Position numbers and translations under genes: made by a program. From Slackia piriformis YIT 12062 (lineage in GTDB: Bacteria > Actinomycetota > Coriobacteriia > Coriobacteriales > Eggerthellaceae), in contig NZ_JH815198.1 in assembly GCF_000296445.1 (NCBI RefSeq), positions 1,365,114 to 1,429,113 on the forward strand: 64,000 nucleotides of DNA, in the 5' to 3' direction. Of this stretch, positions 26,595-32,185 are shown in pieces; within the stretch, counting starts at the first letter, position 1, and each line of letters starts with the position of its first letter. The notes under the pieces were generated by a model, which did no database searches, was not told where the DNA came from, and worked only from the letters and a program-made list of their open reading frames with translations.

Positions 26595-26730
26595 CATAGT
26601 GTCGAAAAATGAAGGCAAAAACGAAACGAAGATAGAAGGCCGCAGCGGGCTTGTTTGTGCGCTTTCGCATTCACGCACGGCCGTATGAAAGAGCGCACCC
26701 GGCGAGCACCTGGCGAAATCGGTGCACAAA

Positions 26731-26763
26731 GAAAAGACCGCAGCCAAGGGCTGCGGTCTTTTC
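26731..26763 (-). terminator. Terminator of the surface-protein gene
   Basis: A perfect 15-bp stem (GAAAAGACCGCAGCC with its complement) and 3-base loop lies 53 bases after the surface-protein stop. The stem ends in TTTTC on either strand, so it may also act on plus-strand transcripts. Confidence 0.8.
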
Positions 26764-26815
26764 AAAAGACGAACGCTGCCGCGCTATGCGGCAGGTTTGT
26801 CAACGACCAGCATGT

Positions 26816-29800
26816 TTAACGCTGCTCGTTGCGACGACGGAGCGCGTACGCGCCTGCACCCAGAGCCGCAACGCCTGCTGCTGCAGCTGCACCGACGAGC
26901 ATCATGCTGCCGTCGGAAGTCTGGGGAAGCGTGGTCGGCTGAGCTTCTTCGTCAGCCTTTGCGGGTTCGGCATTGGAACCCTCAGCGTTGCCGTTTTCGC
27001 CCTGTGCCTGATTCTCATCGGCACCCGGCGCCTCAACTGCGACCTTCTGCCACACGCCGTACAGCGTGATGTCGGCGGTCACGGGAGTGGCGAAATCATA
27101 CAACTCCATGGTCTGCTTATCGAGAGTCCAGCCAAGGAACTTGTAGCCCGCAAGCGTGGGATCGCCCGGACGGGCGACGGCCTTGCCGTCCTCGACCTCG
27201 ACAACCGTGTCATTGGTGGCGTCGATGCCGTCGCTAAAGGTCACCTTGTGGGTGACGACCTGCGGATCGACGGCCTTCCAGTGAGCAACCAGGCTCTGGT
27301 CGGTGTTCGGAGCACGGGTCACAGTGAAGTCGATGATGGCGTCGGAGCCCATGTAGCTCCAGCCTTCGAAGACATAGCCGTCGCGGGGAGCGGGGGTGAC
27401 GACGTTCCAGTTGTACACGCCGGCCTCAATCTGAGACATGGGATAGGTGACGTCGCCCAAAACGGTAGTTTGGTCTTCGTCATAGAACGTGAAGGTCACG
27501 TCCTGCTCGACAGGATCGCCGATTTTCTCCCACTTGGCAACAAAGGTGGCATCGTGCTGGGGGCCTGCGACAGCGGCGGGGTCGACCACGTAGTCGGTAC
27601 CCTCATAGCACCAGCCGACGAACTCGTAGCCTTCCTTGGAGGGCTTGACAACATCCCAGTTGTACACGCCTTCAAGAGCCTGCTCATAGGTGTAGGTCAC
27701 GGATCCGAGAACGGTCCAGTCTTCGTCAACGAAGGTGTAGGTGACGGGCTCCTGGACGGGGGCCTCCGCCTTGTTCCACTTCGCGACGAAGGTCTGGTCG
27801 TGCTGGGGGCCTGCGACAAACGCAGGGTCGATCACGTAGTCGGTGCCCTCGACGCACCAGCCTGCGAACTCGTAGCCTTCCTTGGAGGGCTCGATGACGT
27901 CCCAGTTGTAAAGACCGGCAGCAATCTGTGCGTAGTCGTAAGTCACAGAACCAAGCACCGTGACGCCGTCCTCATCGACGAAGGTGTAGGTGACGGGCTC
28001 CTGGACGGGGGCCTCCGCCTTGTTCCACTTCGCGACGAAGGTGGTGTCGCTCTGAGGACCGGCAACGGTTGCAGGGTCGATCACGTAGTCGGTGCCCTCG
28101 ACGCACCAGCCCGCGAACTCGTAGCCGGGCTTATCCGCAGGAGTGACGACGTCCCAGTTGAAGACGCCCTCGAGAACCTGCTCGTAAGAATAGGTCACGT
28201 CGCCCAGGACCGTGCCGTCCTCATCGACGAAGGTGTAGGTGACGGGCTCCTGGACGGGGGCCTCCGCCTTGTTCCACTTCGCGACGAAGGTCTGGTCGTG
28301 CTGAGGAGCAGCCACGACGGAAGGGTCGATCACGTAGTCGGTGCCCTGGACGCACCAGCCTGCGAACTCGTAGCCTTCCTTGGAGGGCTCGATGACGTCC
28401 CAGTTGTAAAGACCGGCAGCAATCTGTGCGTAGTCGTAAGTCACAGAACCAAGCACCGTGACGCCGTCCTCATCGACGAAGGTGTAGGTGACGGGCTCCT
28501 GGACGGGGGCCTCCGCCTTGTTCCACTTCGCGACGAAGGTGGTGTCGCTCTGAGGACCGGCAACGGTTGCAGGGTCGATCACGTAGTCGGTGCCCTCGAC
28601 GCACCAGCCCGCGAACTCGTAGCCGGGCTTATCCGCAGGAGTGACGACGTCCCAGTTGAAGACGCCCTCGAGAACCTGCTCGTAAGAATAGGTCACGTCG
28701 CCCAGGACCGTGCCGTCCTCATCGACGAAGGTGTAGGTGACGGGCTCCTGGACGGGGGCCTCCGCCTTGTTCCACTTCGCGACGAAGGTCTGGTCGTGCT
28801 GAGGAGCAGCCACGACGGAAGGGTCGATCACGTAGTCGGTGCCCTGGACGCACCAGCCTGCGAACTCGTAGCCTTCCTTGGAGGGCTCGATGACGTCCCA
28901 GTTGTAAAGACCGGCAGCAATCTGTGCGTAGTCGTAAGTCACAGAACCAAGCACCGTGACGCCGTCCTCATCGACGAAGGTGTAGGTGACGGGCTCCTGG
29001 ACGGGGGCCTCCGCCTTGTTCCACTTCGCGACGAAGGTGGTGTCGCTCTGAGGACCGGCAACGGTTGCAGGGTCGATCACGTAGTCGGTGCCCTCGACGC
29101 ACCAGCCCGCGAACTCGTAGCCGGGCTTATCCGCAGGAGTGACGACGTCCCAGTTGAAGACGCCCTCGAGAACCTGCTCGTAAGAATAGGTCACGTCGCC
29201 CAGGACCGTGCCGTCCTCATCGACGAAGGTGTAGGTGACGGGCTCCTGGACGGGGGCCTCCGCCTTGTTCCACTTCGCGACGAAGGTCTGGTCGTGCTGA
29301 GGAGCAGCCACGACGGAAGGGTCGATCACGTAGTCGGTGCCCTGGACGCACCAGCCTGCGAACTCGTAGCCTTCCTTGGAGGGCTCGATGACGTCCCAGT
29401 TGTAAAGACCGGCAGCAATCTGTGCGTAGTCGTAAGTCACAGAACCAAGCACCGTGACGCCGTCCTCATCGACGAAGGTGTAGGTGACGGGCTCCTGCAT
29501 AGGGGTCTCCACCTTGTTCCACTTCGCGACGAAGGTGGTGTCGCTCTGGGGACCAGCGATGGCTGCAGGGTCGATCACGTAGTCGGTGCCCTCGACGCAC
29601 CAGCCCGCGAACTCGTAGCCGGGCTTTTCGGGAGCAACGACAGCCCAGTTGTACACGCCGGCAAGAACCTGCTCGTAGGTGTAGGTGACACTGCCGAGAA
29701 CCGTACCGTCAACGTCCTTGAACGTGTAGGTGACATCTTCCTGGACGGGAACGTCCTGCTTGTTCCACTGGGCGTAGAGGTTCGTGTGCCTGTCGAGCTT

Positions 29801-30403
29801 CGTTCCCTCGACGAACGGCTTGGTGCCGGCGGAGTCGTAGGTCCAGCCAGCGAAATCGTAGCCCTCGCGGGTCGGGTTCTCGGGGAACACGACCGTGCCG
29901 TCGTCCTGCGTGGCGATGTCAAGGAAGGTTGCGCCGGAGCTGAAGGCGCCGCCGTTGGCGTCGAACAGGACCGTGGTGAACGCTGCGGCCTGCTTGTTCC
30001 ACTGGGCGTAGAGGTTCGTGTGCCTGTCGAGCTTCGTTCCCTCGACGAACGGCTTGGTGCCGGCGGAGTCGTAGGTCCAGCCCGCGAAGTAGTAGCCCTC
30101 GCGGGTCGGGTTCTCGGGGAACACGACCGTGCCGTCGGCTTGCGTGGCGATGTCAAGGAAGGTTGCGCCGGAGCTGAAGGCGCCGCCGTAGGCGTCGAAC
30201 AGGACCGTGATGACCTCTGCGGGATCTGCGGGATCTGCGGGCTCCGCGGGATCTGCGGGCTCCGCGGGATCTGCGGGCTCCGCGTAAGGCTGCTGCCCCG
30301 CACTGTCTGCGTCGACCGCAAATGCGGCAGGCGCCACCGGGCCGGCTGCCATAAGCAGGCACAGGCCCGTGGCGATAGCCGCTCTTGGTCTTGTATATTT
30401 CAT
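26816..30403 (-). CDS. Large cell-wall-anchored surface protein built from Flg_new/InlB-type repeats
   Basis: ATG 30403 follows AAAGGAGG by seven bases. The 1,195-residue product has a signal peptide (ending PAAFA), a Pro-Asp-Ala stalk with repeated AEPADP units, two 70-residue Listeria-Bacteroides repeats (ending HTNLYAQWNKQ), about ten 80-residue repeats (opening VTYTFVDEDG, ending TFVAKWNK), one further divergent repeat, an acidic linker and a sorting tail LPQTS, a hydrophobic helix and RRRNEQR. The sorting motif has Ser in place of the usual Gly of LPXTG. It should be exported and linked to peptidoglycan by sortase, as an adhesin-like stalk. Repeats are nearly identical at DNA level. Expression may vary through a G tract in its promoter. 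Confidence 0.9.
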   Translation of the reverse strand: MKYTRPRAAIATGLCLLMAAGPVAPAAFAVDADSAGQQPYAEPADPAEPADPAEPADPADPAEVITVLFDAYGGAFSSGATFLDIATQADGTVVFPENPTREGYYFAGWTYDSAGTKPFVEGTKLDRHTNLYAQWNKQAAAFTTVLFDANGGAFSSGATFLDIATQDDGTVVFPENPTREGYDFAGWTYDSAGTKPFVEGTKLDRHTNLYAQWNKQDVPVQEDVTYTFKDVDGTVLGSVTYTYEQVLAGVYNWAVVAPEKPGYEFAGWCVEGTDYVIDPAAIAGPQSDTTFVAKWNKVETPMQEPVTYTFVDEDGVTVLGSVTYDYAQIAAGLYNWDVIEPSKEGYEFAGWCVQGTDYVIDPSVVAAPQHDQTFVAKWNKAEAPVQEPVTYTFVDEDGTVLGDVTYSYEQVLEGVFNWDVVTPADKPGYEFAGWCVEGTDYVIDPATVAGPQSDTTFVAKWNKAEAPVQEPVTYTFVDEDGVTVLGSVTYDYAQIAAGLYNWDVIEPSKEGYEFAGWCVQGTDYVIDPSVVAAPQHDQTFVAKWNKAEAPVQEPVTYTFVDEDGTVLGDVTYSYEQVLEGVFNWDVVTPADKPGYEFAGWCVEGTDYVIDPATVAGPQSDTTFVAKWNKAEAPVQEPVTYTFVDEDGVTVLGSVTYDYAQIAAGLYNWDVIEPSKEGYEFAGWCVQGTDYVIDPSVVAAPQHDQTFVAKWNKAEAPVQEPVTYTFVDEDGTVLGDVTYSYEQVLEGVFNWDVVTPADKPGYEFAGWCVEGTDYVIDPATVAGPQSDTTFVAKWNKAEAPVQEPVTYTFVDEDGVTVLGSVTYDYAQIAAGLYNWDVIEPSKEGYEFAGWCVEGTDYVIDPAFVAGPQHDQTFVAKWNKAEAPVQEPVTYTFVDEDWTVLGSVTYTYEQALEGVYNWDVVKPSKEGYEFVGWCYEGTDYVVDPAAVAGPQHDATFVAKWEKIGDPVEQDVTFTFYDEDQTTVLGDVTYPMSQIEAGVYNWNVVTPAPRDGYVFEGWSYMGSDAIIDFTVTRAPNTDQSLVAHWKAVDPQVVTHKVTFSDGIDATNDTVVEVEDGKAVARPGDPTLAGYKFLGWTLDKQTMELYDFATPVTADITLYGVWQKVAVEAPGADENQAQGENGNAEGSNAEPAKADEEAQPTTLPQTSDGSMMLVGAAAAAGVAALGAGAYALRRRNEQR
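28023..29516 (-). repeat. Three tandem copies of a 498-bp unit inside the surface-protein gene
   Basis: The same segments recur at intervals of exactly 498 bases (for example the junction at 28023, 28521 and 29019). Each unit encodes two alternating 80-residue repeats (166 residues). The copies look almost identical at DNA level, and diverge only at the outer edge near 29496-29516. This indicates recent duplication and ongoing homogenisation. Confidence 0.9.
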
Positions 30404-30506
30404 AAACATTCCTCCTTTGGTGCGCATGAGCGCGGTCGCTTCTCATTGCGCTATCAACCATATGCAGCAGGCGGTTCTGATCGATTTGCGCAATATATAC
30501 GCTAAA

Positions 30507-30536
30507 AAGATACCCCCCCCCGTATATCGAAGTCAA
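30507..30536 (-). promoter_or_regulatory. Promoter of the surface-protein gene with a G9 tract in the spacer
   Basis: On the minus strand TTGACT (30536-30531) and TATCTT (30512-30507) are 18 bases apart. The spacer ends in nine consecutive G (30513-30521) touching the -10 box. Loss of one G would give the optimal 17-base spacer. A second TTGACA lies directly upstream (30542-30537). The 5' leader is then about 100 bases. A 14-base imperfect palindrome (30560-30573) lies just upstream and could bind an activator. Confidence 0.6.
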
Positions 30537-30698
30537 TGTCAATCTTCCCTTTACCGAACTTATCCATGGGTAAAAACTCCTGATTATCCCGACGTTTTTC
30601 CTATGCATTCCAGCCTATTCCAACCAATGTTGCGCAACATTTCTTGCCCAATTCCAAGCGAAATCGCTCCTCTTCTTTCGCAACATTCCTAAAACTTC

Positions 30699-30750
30699 CC
30701 CATAGACGCAAAAGGGCCGCTTCGAAAAGCGGCCCTTTTGCGTCTATGGG
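30699..30750. terminator. 24-bp perfect hairpin, bidirectional terminator
   Basis: Both 24-base arms are exactly complementary around the loop CGAA. It directly follows the AGCS stop at 30761 on the minus strand. GC-rich inner part and A/T tracts at the flanks suit Rho-independent termination. Confidence 0.8.
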
Positions 30751-30760
30751 TATATAAAAA

Positions 30761-32185
30761 TTATTTCTCCACGATCGGAATCTCATCCTCTGTGCGTTCA
30801 TCCAGATTTTTATCCCATACATAATGCTTGGTTTCGCGAGCAATCATGCCGGAAAGCAGCAGCACCATCAAAATGTTAGGAATCGCCATGAACGCGTTCG
30901 CAATGTCGGACGTCGTCCAGACAATATCCGCCACGCCGACCGCACCCAAAAACGCGGCAAGCACGTACACGATCTGATACGGACGAATGGCACGACGACC
31001 GAACAAGTACGTCACGCAACGGTTTCCGTAATAGCTCCAACCCAAGATGGTGGAATACGAAAACAAAATCATGCCAATCACCAAAACTGGCGTCCCCACG
31101 TAGGGGATGGAGGCGAATGCGGCGCTCGTCAAATCTGCGCCCGCCATGATTCTCCCCTCAGCAATGCCACTCACAAGCTCAGGATGGGCAAGCATCGTGG
31201 AGACGAGCACAATACCTGTCAGCGCGCAGATGACAACCGTATCCCAGAATGTACCCGTCATGGAAACCAGAGCCTGGCGTGCGGGATTGCGCGTTGCCGC
31301 CGCTGAGGCAACAATGGGGGCAGAACCCAAGCCTGATTCGTTGGAGAACAGACCTCGTGCACAACCGAACTGAATAGCCGCCATGATGCCGCTGCCCAGC
31401 AGGCCGCCGAACGCCGCCTGCGGGTTAAACGCAGATTCCACAATGAGACACATGGCTGGCCATACGAATTCGATGTTCATGCCGATGATGACCACGCAGC
31501 CCCATGCGTACGCGATGGCCATGAACGGGACGAGCTTTTCGCATACGCTCGAAATGACGCGCACACCGCCGAAGATGACGATGGCGACCATGATGACGAT
31601 GGCAAGACCGATCGCCCATGTAGGAATACCCGGAAAATTCGACACGATGACGCCCGTCATGGAGCTTGACTGCACCGCCGACCCTATGCCCATGGAGGCG
31701 ACCGTGGTCAGCACGGCGAACGCCGTGGCGCCGAGCACAGCCCACCAGGGCGTCTTGCCGTTCTTTTCAAACGCCCTGCGCCATGCATACATGGCACCGC
31801 CGAGCATATCTCCCTTTTTATCCTTCACACGGTACTTGACCGCCGCATAGACCTCGGAATATTTCGTGGCAATGCCGAACACGCCCGTAAGCCACATCCA
31901 CAATACGGCACCCGGACCGCCCGCCATGATAGCCGTCGCCACGCCGACGATATTGCCTGTTCCGATTGTCGCCGAAAGCGCTGTGGTCAAAGCGCCGAAC
32001 TGGCTGATGTCACCTTCGGCGTCAGGGTCTTTCGTGATGGAGAGCTTGATGGCCGTAGGAAGCTTGCGCTGGATGAAGCCCGTGCGCACCGTCATGTAGA
32101 TGTGCGTGCCCAGAAGCAGCAGAATCATAGGCGGACCCCACACCATTGCGTCAAGCGTGTTGATGGCAGAAACTATCGCATCCAT
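30761..32185 (-). CDS. Alanine/glycine:cation symporter (AGCS family), copy 1
   Basis: The 474-residue protein has about eleven helices and AGCS signatures: TGFIQRKLPTAIKLS, SATIGTGNIVGVATAIMAGG, PGAVLWMWLTGVFG and FGCARGLFSNESGLGSAPIV. The family imports Ala, Gly or related amino acids with Na+ or H+. It is closely similar over its whole length to the copy at 33470. The UPF0114 gene lies between the two, each with its own terminator, so they are separate units. The start ATG 32185 lies in context GAAGGAACGAAC. Confidence 0.94.
   Translation of the reverse strand: MDAIVSAINTLDAMVWGPPMILLLLGTHIYMTVRTGFIQRKLPTAIKLSITKDPDAEGDISQFGALTTALSATIGTGNIVGVATAIMAGGPGAVLWMWLTGVFGIATKYSEVYAAVKYRVKDKKGDMLGGAMYAWRRAFEKNGKTPWWAVLGATAFAVLTTVASMGIGSAVQSSSMTGVIVSNFPGIPTWAIGLAIVIMVAIVIFGGVRVISSVCEKLVPFMAIAYAWGCVVIIGMNIEFVWPAMCLIVESAFNPQAAFGGLLGSGIMAAIQFGCARGLFSNESGLGSAPIVASAAATRNPARQALVSMTGTFWDTVVICALTGIVLVSTMLAHPELVSGIAEGRIMAGADLTSAAFASIPYVGTPVLVIGMILFSYSTILGWSYYGNRCVTYLFGRRAIRPYQIVYVLAAFLGAVGVADIVWTTSDIANAFMAIPNILMVLLLSGMIARETKHYVWDKNLDERTEDEIPIVEK

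What the first reader, a model, noticed from the sequence alone, without database searches (positions are those of the whole stretch)
30507..30573. Poly-G tract between -35 and -10 of the surface-protein gene: possible phase-variable adhesin
The best promoter for the 1,195-residue LPxT surface protein has TTGACT and TATCTT 18 bases apart, with nine consecutive G residues next to the -10 box. Homopolymer tracts in promoter spacers change length by slipped-strand mispairing and switch expression in Neisseria, Haemophilus and others. One fewer G gives a 17-base spacer. Seen: the tract and boxes. Inferred: slippage and switching.
Basis: partly seen in the sequence, partly recalled or inferred. Interest (0 to 1): 0.68.

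Follow-up and report, generated by a model that had tools for sequence, protein, structure and literature searches.

The report
Poly-G slippage promoter of surface protein
A run of nine Gs sits inside the likely promoter of a gene for a large cell-surface protein in a gut-type bacterium, and many related bacteria carry the same arrangement, often in front of similar surface genes, so such genes may be switched up and down at random as the run gains or loses a base.

Summary
Confirmed: on the minus strand TTGACT, nine bases, G9 (30521-30513) and TATCTT give an 18-nt spacer, 103 nt before the ATG of a 1,195-aa secreted LPQTS-type protein with Listeria-Bacteroides repeats. The boxes alone are at chance level: 482 of 2000 shuffles give an equal pair. 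The run is not: the genome has seven runs of 9-10 where about 0.2 would be expected. The strongest evidence is comparative. A -35/G8+/-10 pattern has 57 matches in 35 of 138 family genomes, against 8 for the reversed pattern. Runs at that position are far longer than background (10 of 20 collapsed cases reach 8 or more, p=1e-13). Of 27 canonical promoters, 21 precede proteins with a Sec-type N-terminus, against 17 of 154 sampled genes. Five further PF09479 proteins have such promoters. Some related promoters with conserved flanks differ in run length (G10/G11, G10/G9). Best reading: spacer-length phase variation by slipped-strand mispairing, as in meningococcal porA, spread across this order. 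Slippage, switching and adhesion at this locus were not observed.

The parts
30531..30536 (-). -35 box TTGACT
   Evidence: 5 of 6 to consensus
30537..30542 (-). perfect TTGACA hexamer directly upstream of the -35 box (24 nt from the -10, so probably not used as assembled)
30522..30530 (-). nine-base constant part of the spacer (TCGATATAC); nine bases is also the commonest length in the family set
30513..30521 (-). G9 run, the proposed slippage tract
30507..30512 (-). -10 box TATCTT, abutting the run
   Evidence: 4 of 6 to consensus
30411..30418 (-). ribosome-binding site AAAGGAGG
26816..30403 (-). surface protein, 1,195 aa plus stop
   Evidence: PF09479 / TIGR02543 repeats
30314..30403 (-). 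predicted Sec signal peptide (about the first 30 residues)
   Evidence: heuristic; translation
27579..29769 (-). tandem repeat array of the coding region (period 249/498 nt, 498-nt copies 94% matches)
26819..26929 (-). C-terminal sorting-type signal: LPQTS, hydrophobic stretch, basic tail
   Evidence: two sortases in the genome
30700..30749 (-). hairpin of 23 pairs after the upstream symporter gene, probable terminator, so the surface gene is probably its own unit
   Evidence: -44.2 kcal/mol, z -11

Best explanation
The G9 run is the variable part of a sigma-70-type promoter spacer. Slipped-strand mispairing during replication adds or removes a G, which changes the -35/-10 spacing (18 nt as assembled) by one base per G and so raises or lowers transcription of the sortase-type surface protein; a clonal population would hold cells with high and low expression. 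It is one case of a promoter type (-35, mostly 6-10 bases, G8-G11, TATNNT) that Eggerthellaceae and other families of the order use largely for surface proteins. Shown: the architecture, its recurrence, the excess of long runs at this position, the association with secreted proteins, and run-length differences between some related promoters of other species. Inferred: slippage at this locus, use of these boxes, the effect on transcription, and any role in adhesion or in escape from immunity or phages.
For: Pattern enrichment 57 against 8 reversed in 138 family genomes. Run lengths with runs from 5 allowed: 5:10, 6:3, 7:0, 8:1, 9:3, 10:11, 11:3 (read by eye); 18 of 31 reach 8 against 14 of 1255 background runs of 5 or more (p=7e-24), 10 of 20 after collapsing relatives on both sides (p=1e-13). 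21 of 27 canonical promoters before Sec-type N-termini against 17 of 154 (p=3e-12); 11 of 18 independent, surface-like only (p=5e-6). PF09479 proteins, the family of the window protein, behind five further such promoters in three genomes of three genera. Same order outside the family: 10 of 23 genomes with a match, against 22 of 358 outside the class (p=2e-6). Run length differs with nearly identical flanks: G10/G11 with 199 of 200 flank bases identical; G10/G9 with 181 of 200 and no indel; C18/C13/C12/C11 in four genomes of one genus. Other long runs of the same genome sit where a length change shifts a reading frame.
Against: The boxes alone are at chance level. The promoter region has no match in the other 11 genus genomes and the protein only repeat- or end-level matches, so no direct orthologue was compared. 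Length differences are between species and from assemblies, in which homopolymers are error-prone. Three pairs of related promoters show no change of length in the run region (L213/L214, L297/L298, and L222/L224, where one base differs instead). The commonest spacer in the set is 19, not the usual optimum of 17. Six of the 27 canonical sites did not score as Sec-type, one of them because of a wrong start chosen by the script. The pattern set was limited to runs of 8 or more, which favours long runs by construction; removes that bias.
Confidence: 0.72

Rival explanations
1. The boxes and run form a working promoter, but the G run is a fixed structural or regulator-binding element; its length is held constant and expression does not switch.
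For: The -35-to-run distance is often nine bases and the modal run is 10; several related promoters have equal runs.
Against: Runs vary from 8 to 11 among canonical sites and between promoters with nearly identical flanks; long G runs elsewhere in this genome lie in coding frames, where a regulator site would not be expected.
Confidence: 0.15
2. The boxes are a chance match, the true promoter lies elsewhere in the 357-nt intergenic stretch, and the run affects nothing or acts otherwise.
For: 482 of 2000 shuffles give an equal pair; 1 pair found against 1.1 expected.
Against: The same box-run-box order is strongly enriched in the family and order, and no better pair exists in this stretch.
Confidence: 0.1
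3. The run length, or the run itself, is a sequencing or assembly artefact.
For: Homopolymers are error-prone in assemblies (general knowledge); one assembly only was seen for this species.
Against: Long runs recur at the same promoter position in many separate genomes, while run counts elsewhere fall about tenfold per base.
Confidence: 0.03

Closest known systems
Neisseria meningitidis porA poly-G promoter spacer (passage in PMC3899988, citing van der Ende 1995, which I did not read)
   Same: Poly-G run between -35 and -10; a change of one G changes transcription of a surface protein.
   Different: Gram-negative porin; length variation and its effect were measured there, not here. Here the run abuts the -10 and the design recurs across a family of Actinomycetota.
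Bifidobacterium breve UCC2003 sortase-dependent pilus G-tracts (abstract and outline of PMC9187656)
   Same: G-run replication slippage in a gut actinobacterium controlling a sortase-dependent surface structure.
   Different: The run is inside the gene and works by frame; here it is in a promoter spacer.
Haemophilus influenzae hifA/hifB TA repeat (passage in PMC3899988)
   Same: Repeat number changes the -35/-10 spacing of genes for adhesive appendages.
   Different: Dinucleotide repeat in a divergent promoter.
Eggerthella lenta phase variation by DNA inversion or retroelements (passages in PMC13174815 and PMC8778435)
   Same: Same bacterial family; surface or phage-related variation.
   Different: Recombination- or retroelement-based, no homopolymer run described in the passages seen.

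Membership tests
Homopolymer promoter-spacer contingency locus (porA type) | homopolymeric run between -35 and -10 boxes | tested here: met
   boxes themselves at chance level
Homopolymer promoter-spacer contingency locus (porA type) | run much longer than expected for the genome and recurrent at this position | tested here: met
Homopolymer promoter-spacer contingency locus (porA type) | run length varies among cells or strains | tested here: inconclusive
   varies between species at some related promoters; no second strain or reads for this locus
Homopolymer promoter-spacer contingency locus (porA type) | transcription depends on run length | not testable with these tools
   needs transcript mapping and reporters
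Homopolymer promoter-spacer contingency locus (porA type) | downstream gene encodes a surface component | tested here: met
   predicted only: signal peptide, PF09479 repeats, LPQTS end
Sortase-anchored (LPXTG-type) surface protein | signal peptide, LPxT motif, hydrophobic stretch, basic tail; sortase in the genome | tested here: met
   LPQTS rather than LPxTG; two PF04203 matches over the cut-off
Sortase-anchored (LPXTG-type) surface protein | match to a curated anchor-domain model | tested here: not met
   no anchor family listed by Pfam or NCBIfam
Adhesin | binds a host or bacterial ligand | not testable with these tools
   only List_Bact/InlB-type repeats recognised

The most novel reading that the evidence does not exclude
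Coriobacteriia of this order carry a lineage-wide transcriptional phasome: poly-G (and poly-C) promoter-spacer switches before sortase-, cell-wall-binding- or S-layer-type surface proteins, including an array of six surface genes in one genome (G041) each with its own G10 or G11 promoter, so that clonal gut populations would show random combinations of surface proteins.
Probability: 0.58. Interest if true: 0.72.

Novelty: new member of a known kind. Interest (0 to 1): 0.6.

Why it matters
Promoter-spacer phase variation is textbook in mucosal pathogens. My paper searches listed none for Eggerthellaceae (listings, with passages of some papers); the variation described in the passages I saw was by DNA inversion, tyrosine recombinase or retroelement (PMC8778435, PMC13174815). 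If right, surface heterogeneity of Slackia, Gordonibacter, Raoultibacter and relatives can be read from run lengths in sequencing data. It would bear on colonisation, immune recognition, phage sensitivity and strain comparison, and it can be tested with public reads.

Tried and rejected
Following the promoter across species: the 361-nt region matched only the own genome among 12 genus genomes, and the surface protein gave only partial matches of 20-50 bits outside the own copy. The genome-contig scan with the neighbouring symporter gave relatives of at most 81% identity; the tool says that records of the own genome may be left out.

Replication-strand bias: all ten long runs read C on the + strand, but GC skew changes sign at about 0.75 Mb of contig 1, so the run at 198 kb and those on contig 2 do not fit a leading-strand rule; dropped.

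RNA element: no Rfam match in 30380-30780 at gathering thresholds. DNA inversion as the switch: not searched. Paired TTGCGCAA dyads as a regulator site: unresolved (3 in the window, 2.9 expected).

A second control for signal peptides, from the symporter loci, gave 0 genes because of wrong locus names in my script; it was not used and not repeated, so the only control is 154 genes of the own genome. A first collapsed count (11 of 24, p=3e-14) was miscounted; the corrected one is 10 of 20 (p=1e-13).

The C8 run in L129 lies in a DUF6020 gene whose reading frame seems broken in other ways too; not counted as a switch. Outside the order the pattern is only weakly enriched (24 matches in 22 of 358 genomes against 13 reversed), so I do not extend the claim to all Actinomycetota.

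Full report
THE OBSERVATION. On the minus strand the window reads TTGACT (30536-30531), TCGATATAC, G9 (30521-30513), TATCTT (30512-30507): an 18-nt spacer whose second half is the run. A perfect TTGACA abuts the -35 box upstream. The ATG at 30403, behind AAAGGAGG, opens a 1,195-aa protein with a Sec-type N-terminus, Listeria-Bacteroides repeats (PF09479, TIGR02543) and a C-terminal LPQTS, hydrophobic stretch and basic tail. No curated anchor-domain model is listed for it. The genome has two sortase matches over the cut-off. Upstream, a 23-pair hairpin (30749-30700, -44.2 kcal/mol, z -11) follows the sodium:alanine symporter gene, so the surface gene is probably its own transcription unit.

CHANCE. 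The two boxes are not remarkable: 1 pair found and 1.1 expected in 1.7 kb; 482 of 2000 base shuffles of the 357-nt intergenic stretch hold an equal pair. The run is remarkable. It is the only run of 7 or more in the window, where shuffles average 7.5 matches to G7. The genome has ten runs of 8 or more, seven of them 9 or 10 long. Counts of runs of 5, 6 and 7 in the window plus 240 kb of stretches are 286, 26 and 3 (a few kb of the stretches read N), which extrapolates to about 0.2 runs of 9 or more per genome. The stretches were picked after the long runs were known and hold none of the other nine, so their zero count of longer runs is not evidence.

THE SAME GENOME. Of the ten runs, one is the promoter studied here. 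Four lie in genes where a length change would shift the frame: six codons into a TetR-family gene (in frame as assembled); early in a DUF6020 membrane protein (in frame); early in an AMP-binding enzyme, where the ATG with a ribosome-binding site is out of frame with the body, although a TTG-started frame without such a site stays open; and in a regulator, between a long open N-terminal frame without a Pfam match and a LuxR helix-turn-helix that is out of frame with it. One lies 24 nt into a 60-codon ORF directly before a helicase gene. The other four are an ORF that I take, untested, for a transposase; the DUF6020 gene with other apparent breaks; and two that appear intergenic. This looks like a set of simple-repeat contingency loci; it is inferred from sequence.

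THE FAMILY. The pattern TTGA-N1..13-G8-N0..9-TANNNT has 57 matches (54 distinct places) in 35 of 138 family genomes, against 8 for the pattern read backwards. A stricter pattern that allows runs from 5 upward has 31 matches in 21 genomes, against 8 backwards. Its run lengths, read by eye from the list, are 5:10, 6:3, 7:0, 8:1, 9:3, 10:11, 11:3. The window itself is not in that set because its -35 ends in T. In the 75 family loci brought in by the symporter, 14 of 1255 runs of 5 or more reach 8, and none of the 6 that are followed by TANNNT does; at promoter positions 18 of 31 do (p=7e-24). Collapsing paralogues and orthologues on both sides leaves 10 of 20 (p=1e-13). The C-run version of the first pattern has 23 matches (22 places) in 19 genomes against 9 backwards. 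In a phylum-wide draw of 396 genomes, 10 of 23 genomes of other families of the same order have a match (13 matches, none backwards), against 22 of 358 outside the class (24 matches, 13 backwards); 1 of 11 further family genomes and 0 of 3 other same-class genomes had one. So the enrichment belongs to this order.

WHAT LIES DOWNSTREAM. I examined 47 of the 54 places by script. In 27 the run lies 0-1 base from the -10 and the spacer is 15-20. Of these 27, 21 lead to a protein with a Sec-type N-terminus by a simple rule of mine, against 17 of 154 sampled genes of the own genome (p=3e-12). The six misses are L211, L216 (no gene found), L232, L243, L248 and L215; in L215 the script took an inner start, and the longer ORF begins with what looks like a signal peptide. 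Three of the 21 are a transporter (two genomes) and a small membrane protein rather than surface proteins. Counting by hand independent cases, and only surface-like proteins, gives 11 of 18, L215 included (p=5e-6). Of the other seven places, G008, G009 and G010 were read; G129, G130, G133 and G137 were not. The 20 examined non-canonical matches include several secreted proteins as well; they were not counted. PF09479 proteins, the family of the window protein, stand behind such promoters in L218 (G041), L226 and L227 (G074), and twice in L233 (G098, contig length equal to that of Raoultibacter timonensis NZ_LT964679.1). Five of the six G041 proteins have no such repeat. In other families of the order, canonical promoters precede an SLH protein (L303) and an LRR_5/Cna_B protein (L304), while others there (L305, L307, L309, L310) precede proteins that are not clearly surface proteins. 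In the window's own genus, G005 has a G9 run in a 17-nt spacer 229 nt before a 1,440+ aa FctA/SpaA protein. G008 and G009 share TTGAC-G9 before similar genes, of which the G008 copy matches Peptidase_S26. In G002 (contig length equal to that of Slackia exigua ATCC 700122 NZ_GG700630.1) C-runs lie about 60 nt upstream of a Cna_B protein (C9) and a VWA protein (C10, T, C8). G041 contig 70 has six such promoters, four G10 and two G11, each before a 545-1183 aa secreted protein with a sorting-type C-terminus.

LENGTH VARIATION. Two genomes of one genus (G078, contig length equal to that of Gordonibacter pamelaeae 7-10-1-b, and G079) have 199 of 200 flanking bases identical and G10 against G11. A transporter promoter in two genomes of genus g38 has 181 of 200 flanking bases identical, no indel in the flanks, and G10 against G9. 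A C-run promoter before an SdpI-family gene in genus g22 (G064 has the length that I recall for Eggerthella lenta DSM 2243) reads C18, C13, C12 and C11; the C18 and C11 copies keep both boxes and 180 of 203 aligned flank columns, six of the columns being gaps. Against this, L213/L214 (G10) and L297/L298 (C10) are equal, and L222/L224 differ by a base change, not by length. All these are differences between species, from assemblies.

MECHANISM. The best reading is slipped-strand mispairing in the run, which changes the spacing of the -35 and -10 boxes and so the strength of the promoter; cells of one population would differ in the level of the surface protein. The closest precedent is porA of Neisseria meningitidis, where a poly-G run in the spacer sets transcription (passage in PMC3899988). 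In a gut actinobacterium, Bifidobacterium breve, G-run slippage controls sortase-dependent pili, but inside genes (abstract and outline of PMC9187656). Not shown here: slippage at this locus, the transcript start, any expression difference, and adhesion.

NOVELTY. The kind is known. Its occurrence in this order and its breadth I did not find in print (listings; passages of PMC8778435 and PMC13174815, which describe recombination and retroelement systems in Eggerthella; passages of PMC2831843, whose main text has no mention of Eggerthella or Slackia). The library is open-access only. I file it as a new member of a known kind with an unusually broad distribution.

Noticed in passing
L217 and L218 (G041 contig 70): Six large secreted proteins in about 31 kb, each with its own TTGAAAA-N8-G10/G11-TAT promoter and a similar sorting-type C-terminus.
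   Followed up: partly
L292-L295 (genus g22; G064 probably Eggerthella lenta DSM 2243 by recalled length): C-run of 18, 13, 12 and 11 directly after TTGACG, before an SdpI/YfhL-family gene.
   Followed up: partly
L128 3157, L129 13159, L130 4461, L133 3396 (own genome): Long G/C runs inside a TetR-family gene, an AMP-binding enzyme, a DUF6020 membrane protein and a LuxR-type regulator; the second and fourth are out of frame as assembled. Further candidate phase-variable genes.
   Followed up: partly
window 30486-30493 and 30630-30637: Two of the three TTGCGCAA dyads of the 64-kb window lie in this one intergenic region, one just below the -10 box, the other within GTTGCGCAAC; a possible operator pair.
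   Followed up: partly
window 27579-29769: The surface gene holds a 249/498-nt tandem array (498-nt copies 94% matches), so its repeat number could also vary by recombination.
   Followed up: no
L137 3392 (G002): C11 run just behind the GGDEF domain of a diguanylate cyclase-type protein; a length change would alter its C-terminus.
   Followed up: no
own genome, ten runs of 8 or more: All ten read C on the + strand of the contigs; GC skew does not explain it fully and it may be coincidence.
   Followed up: partly
window 26651-30505 (+): A 1,284-codon open frame lies antisense to the surface gene; probably a by-product of its codon usage and repeats.
   Followed up: no
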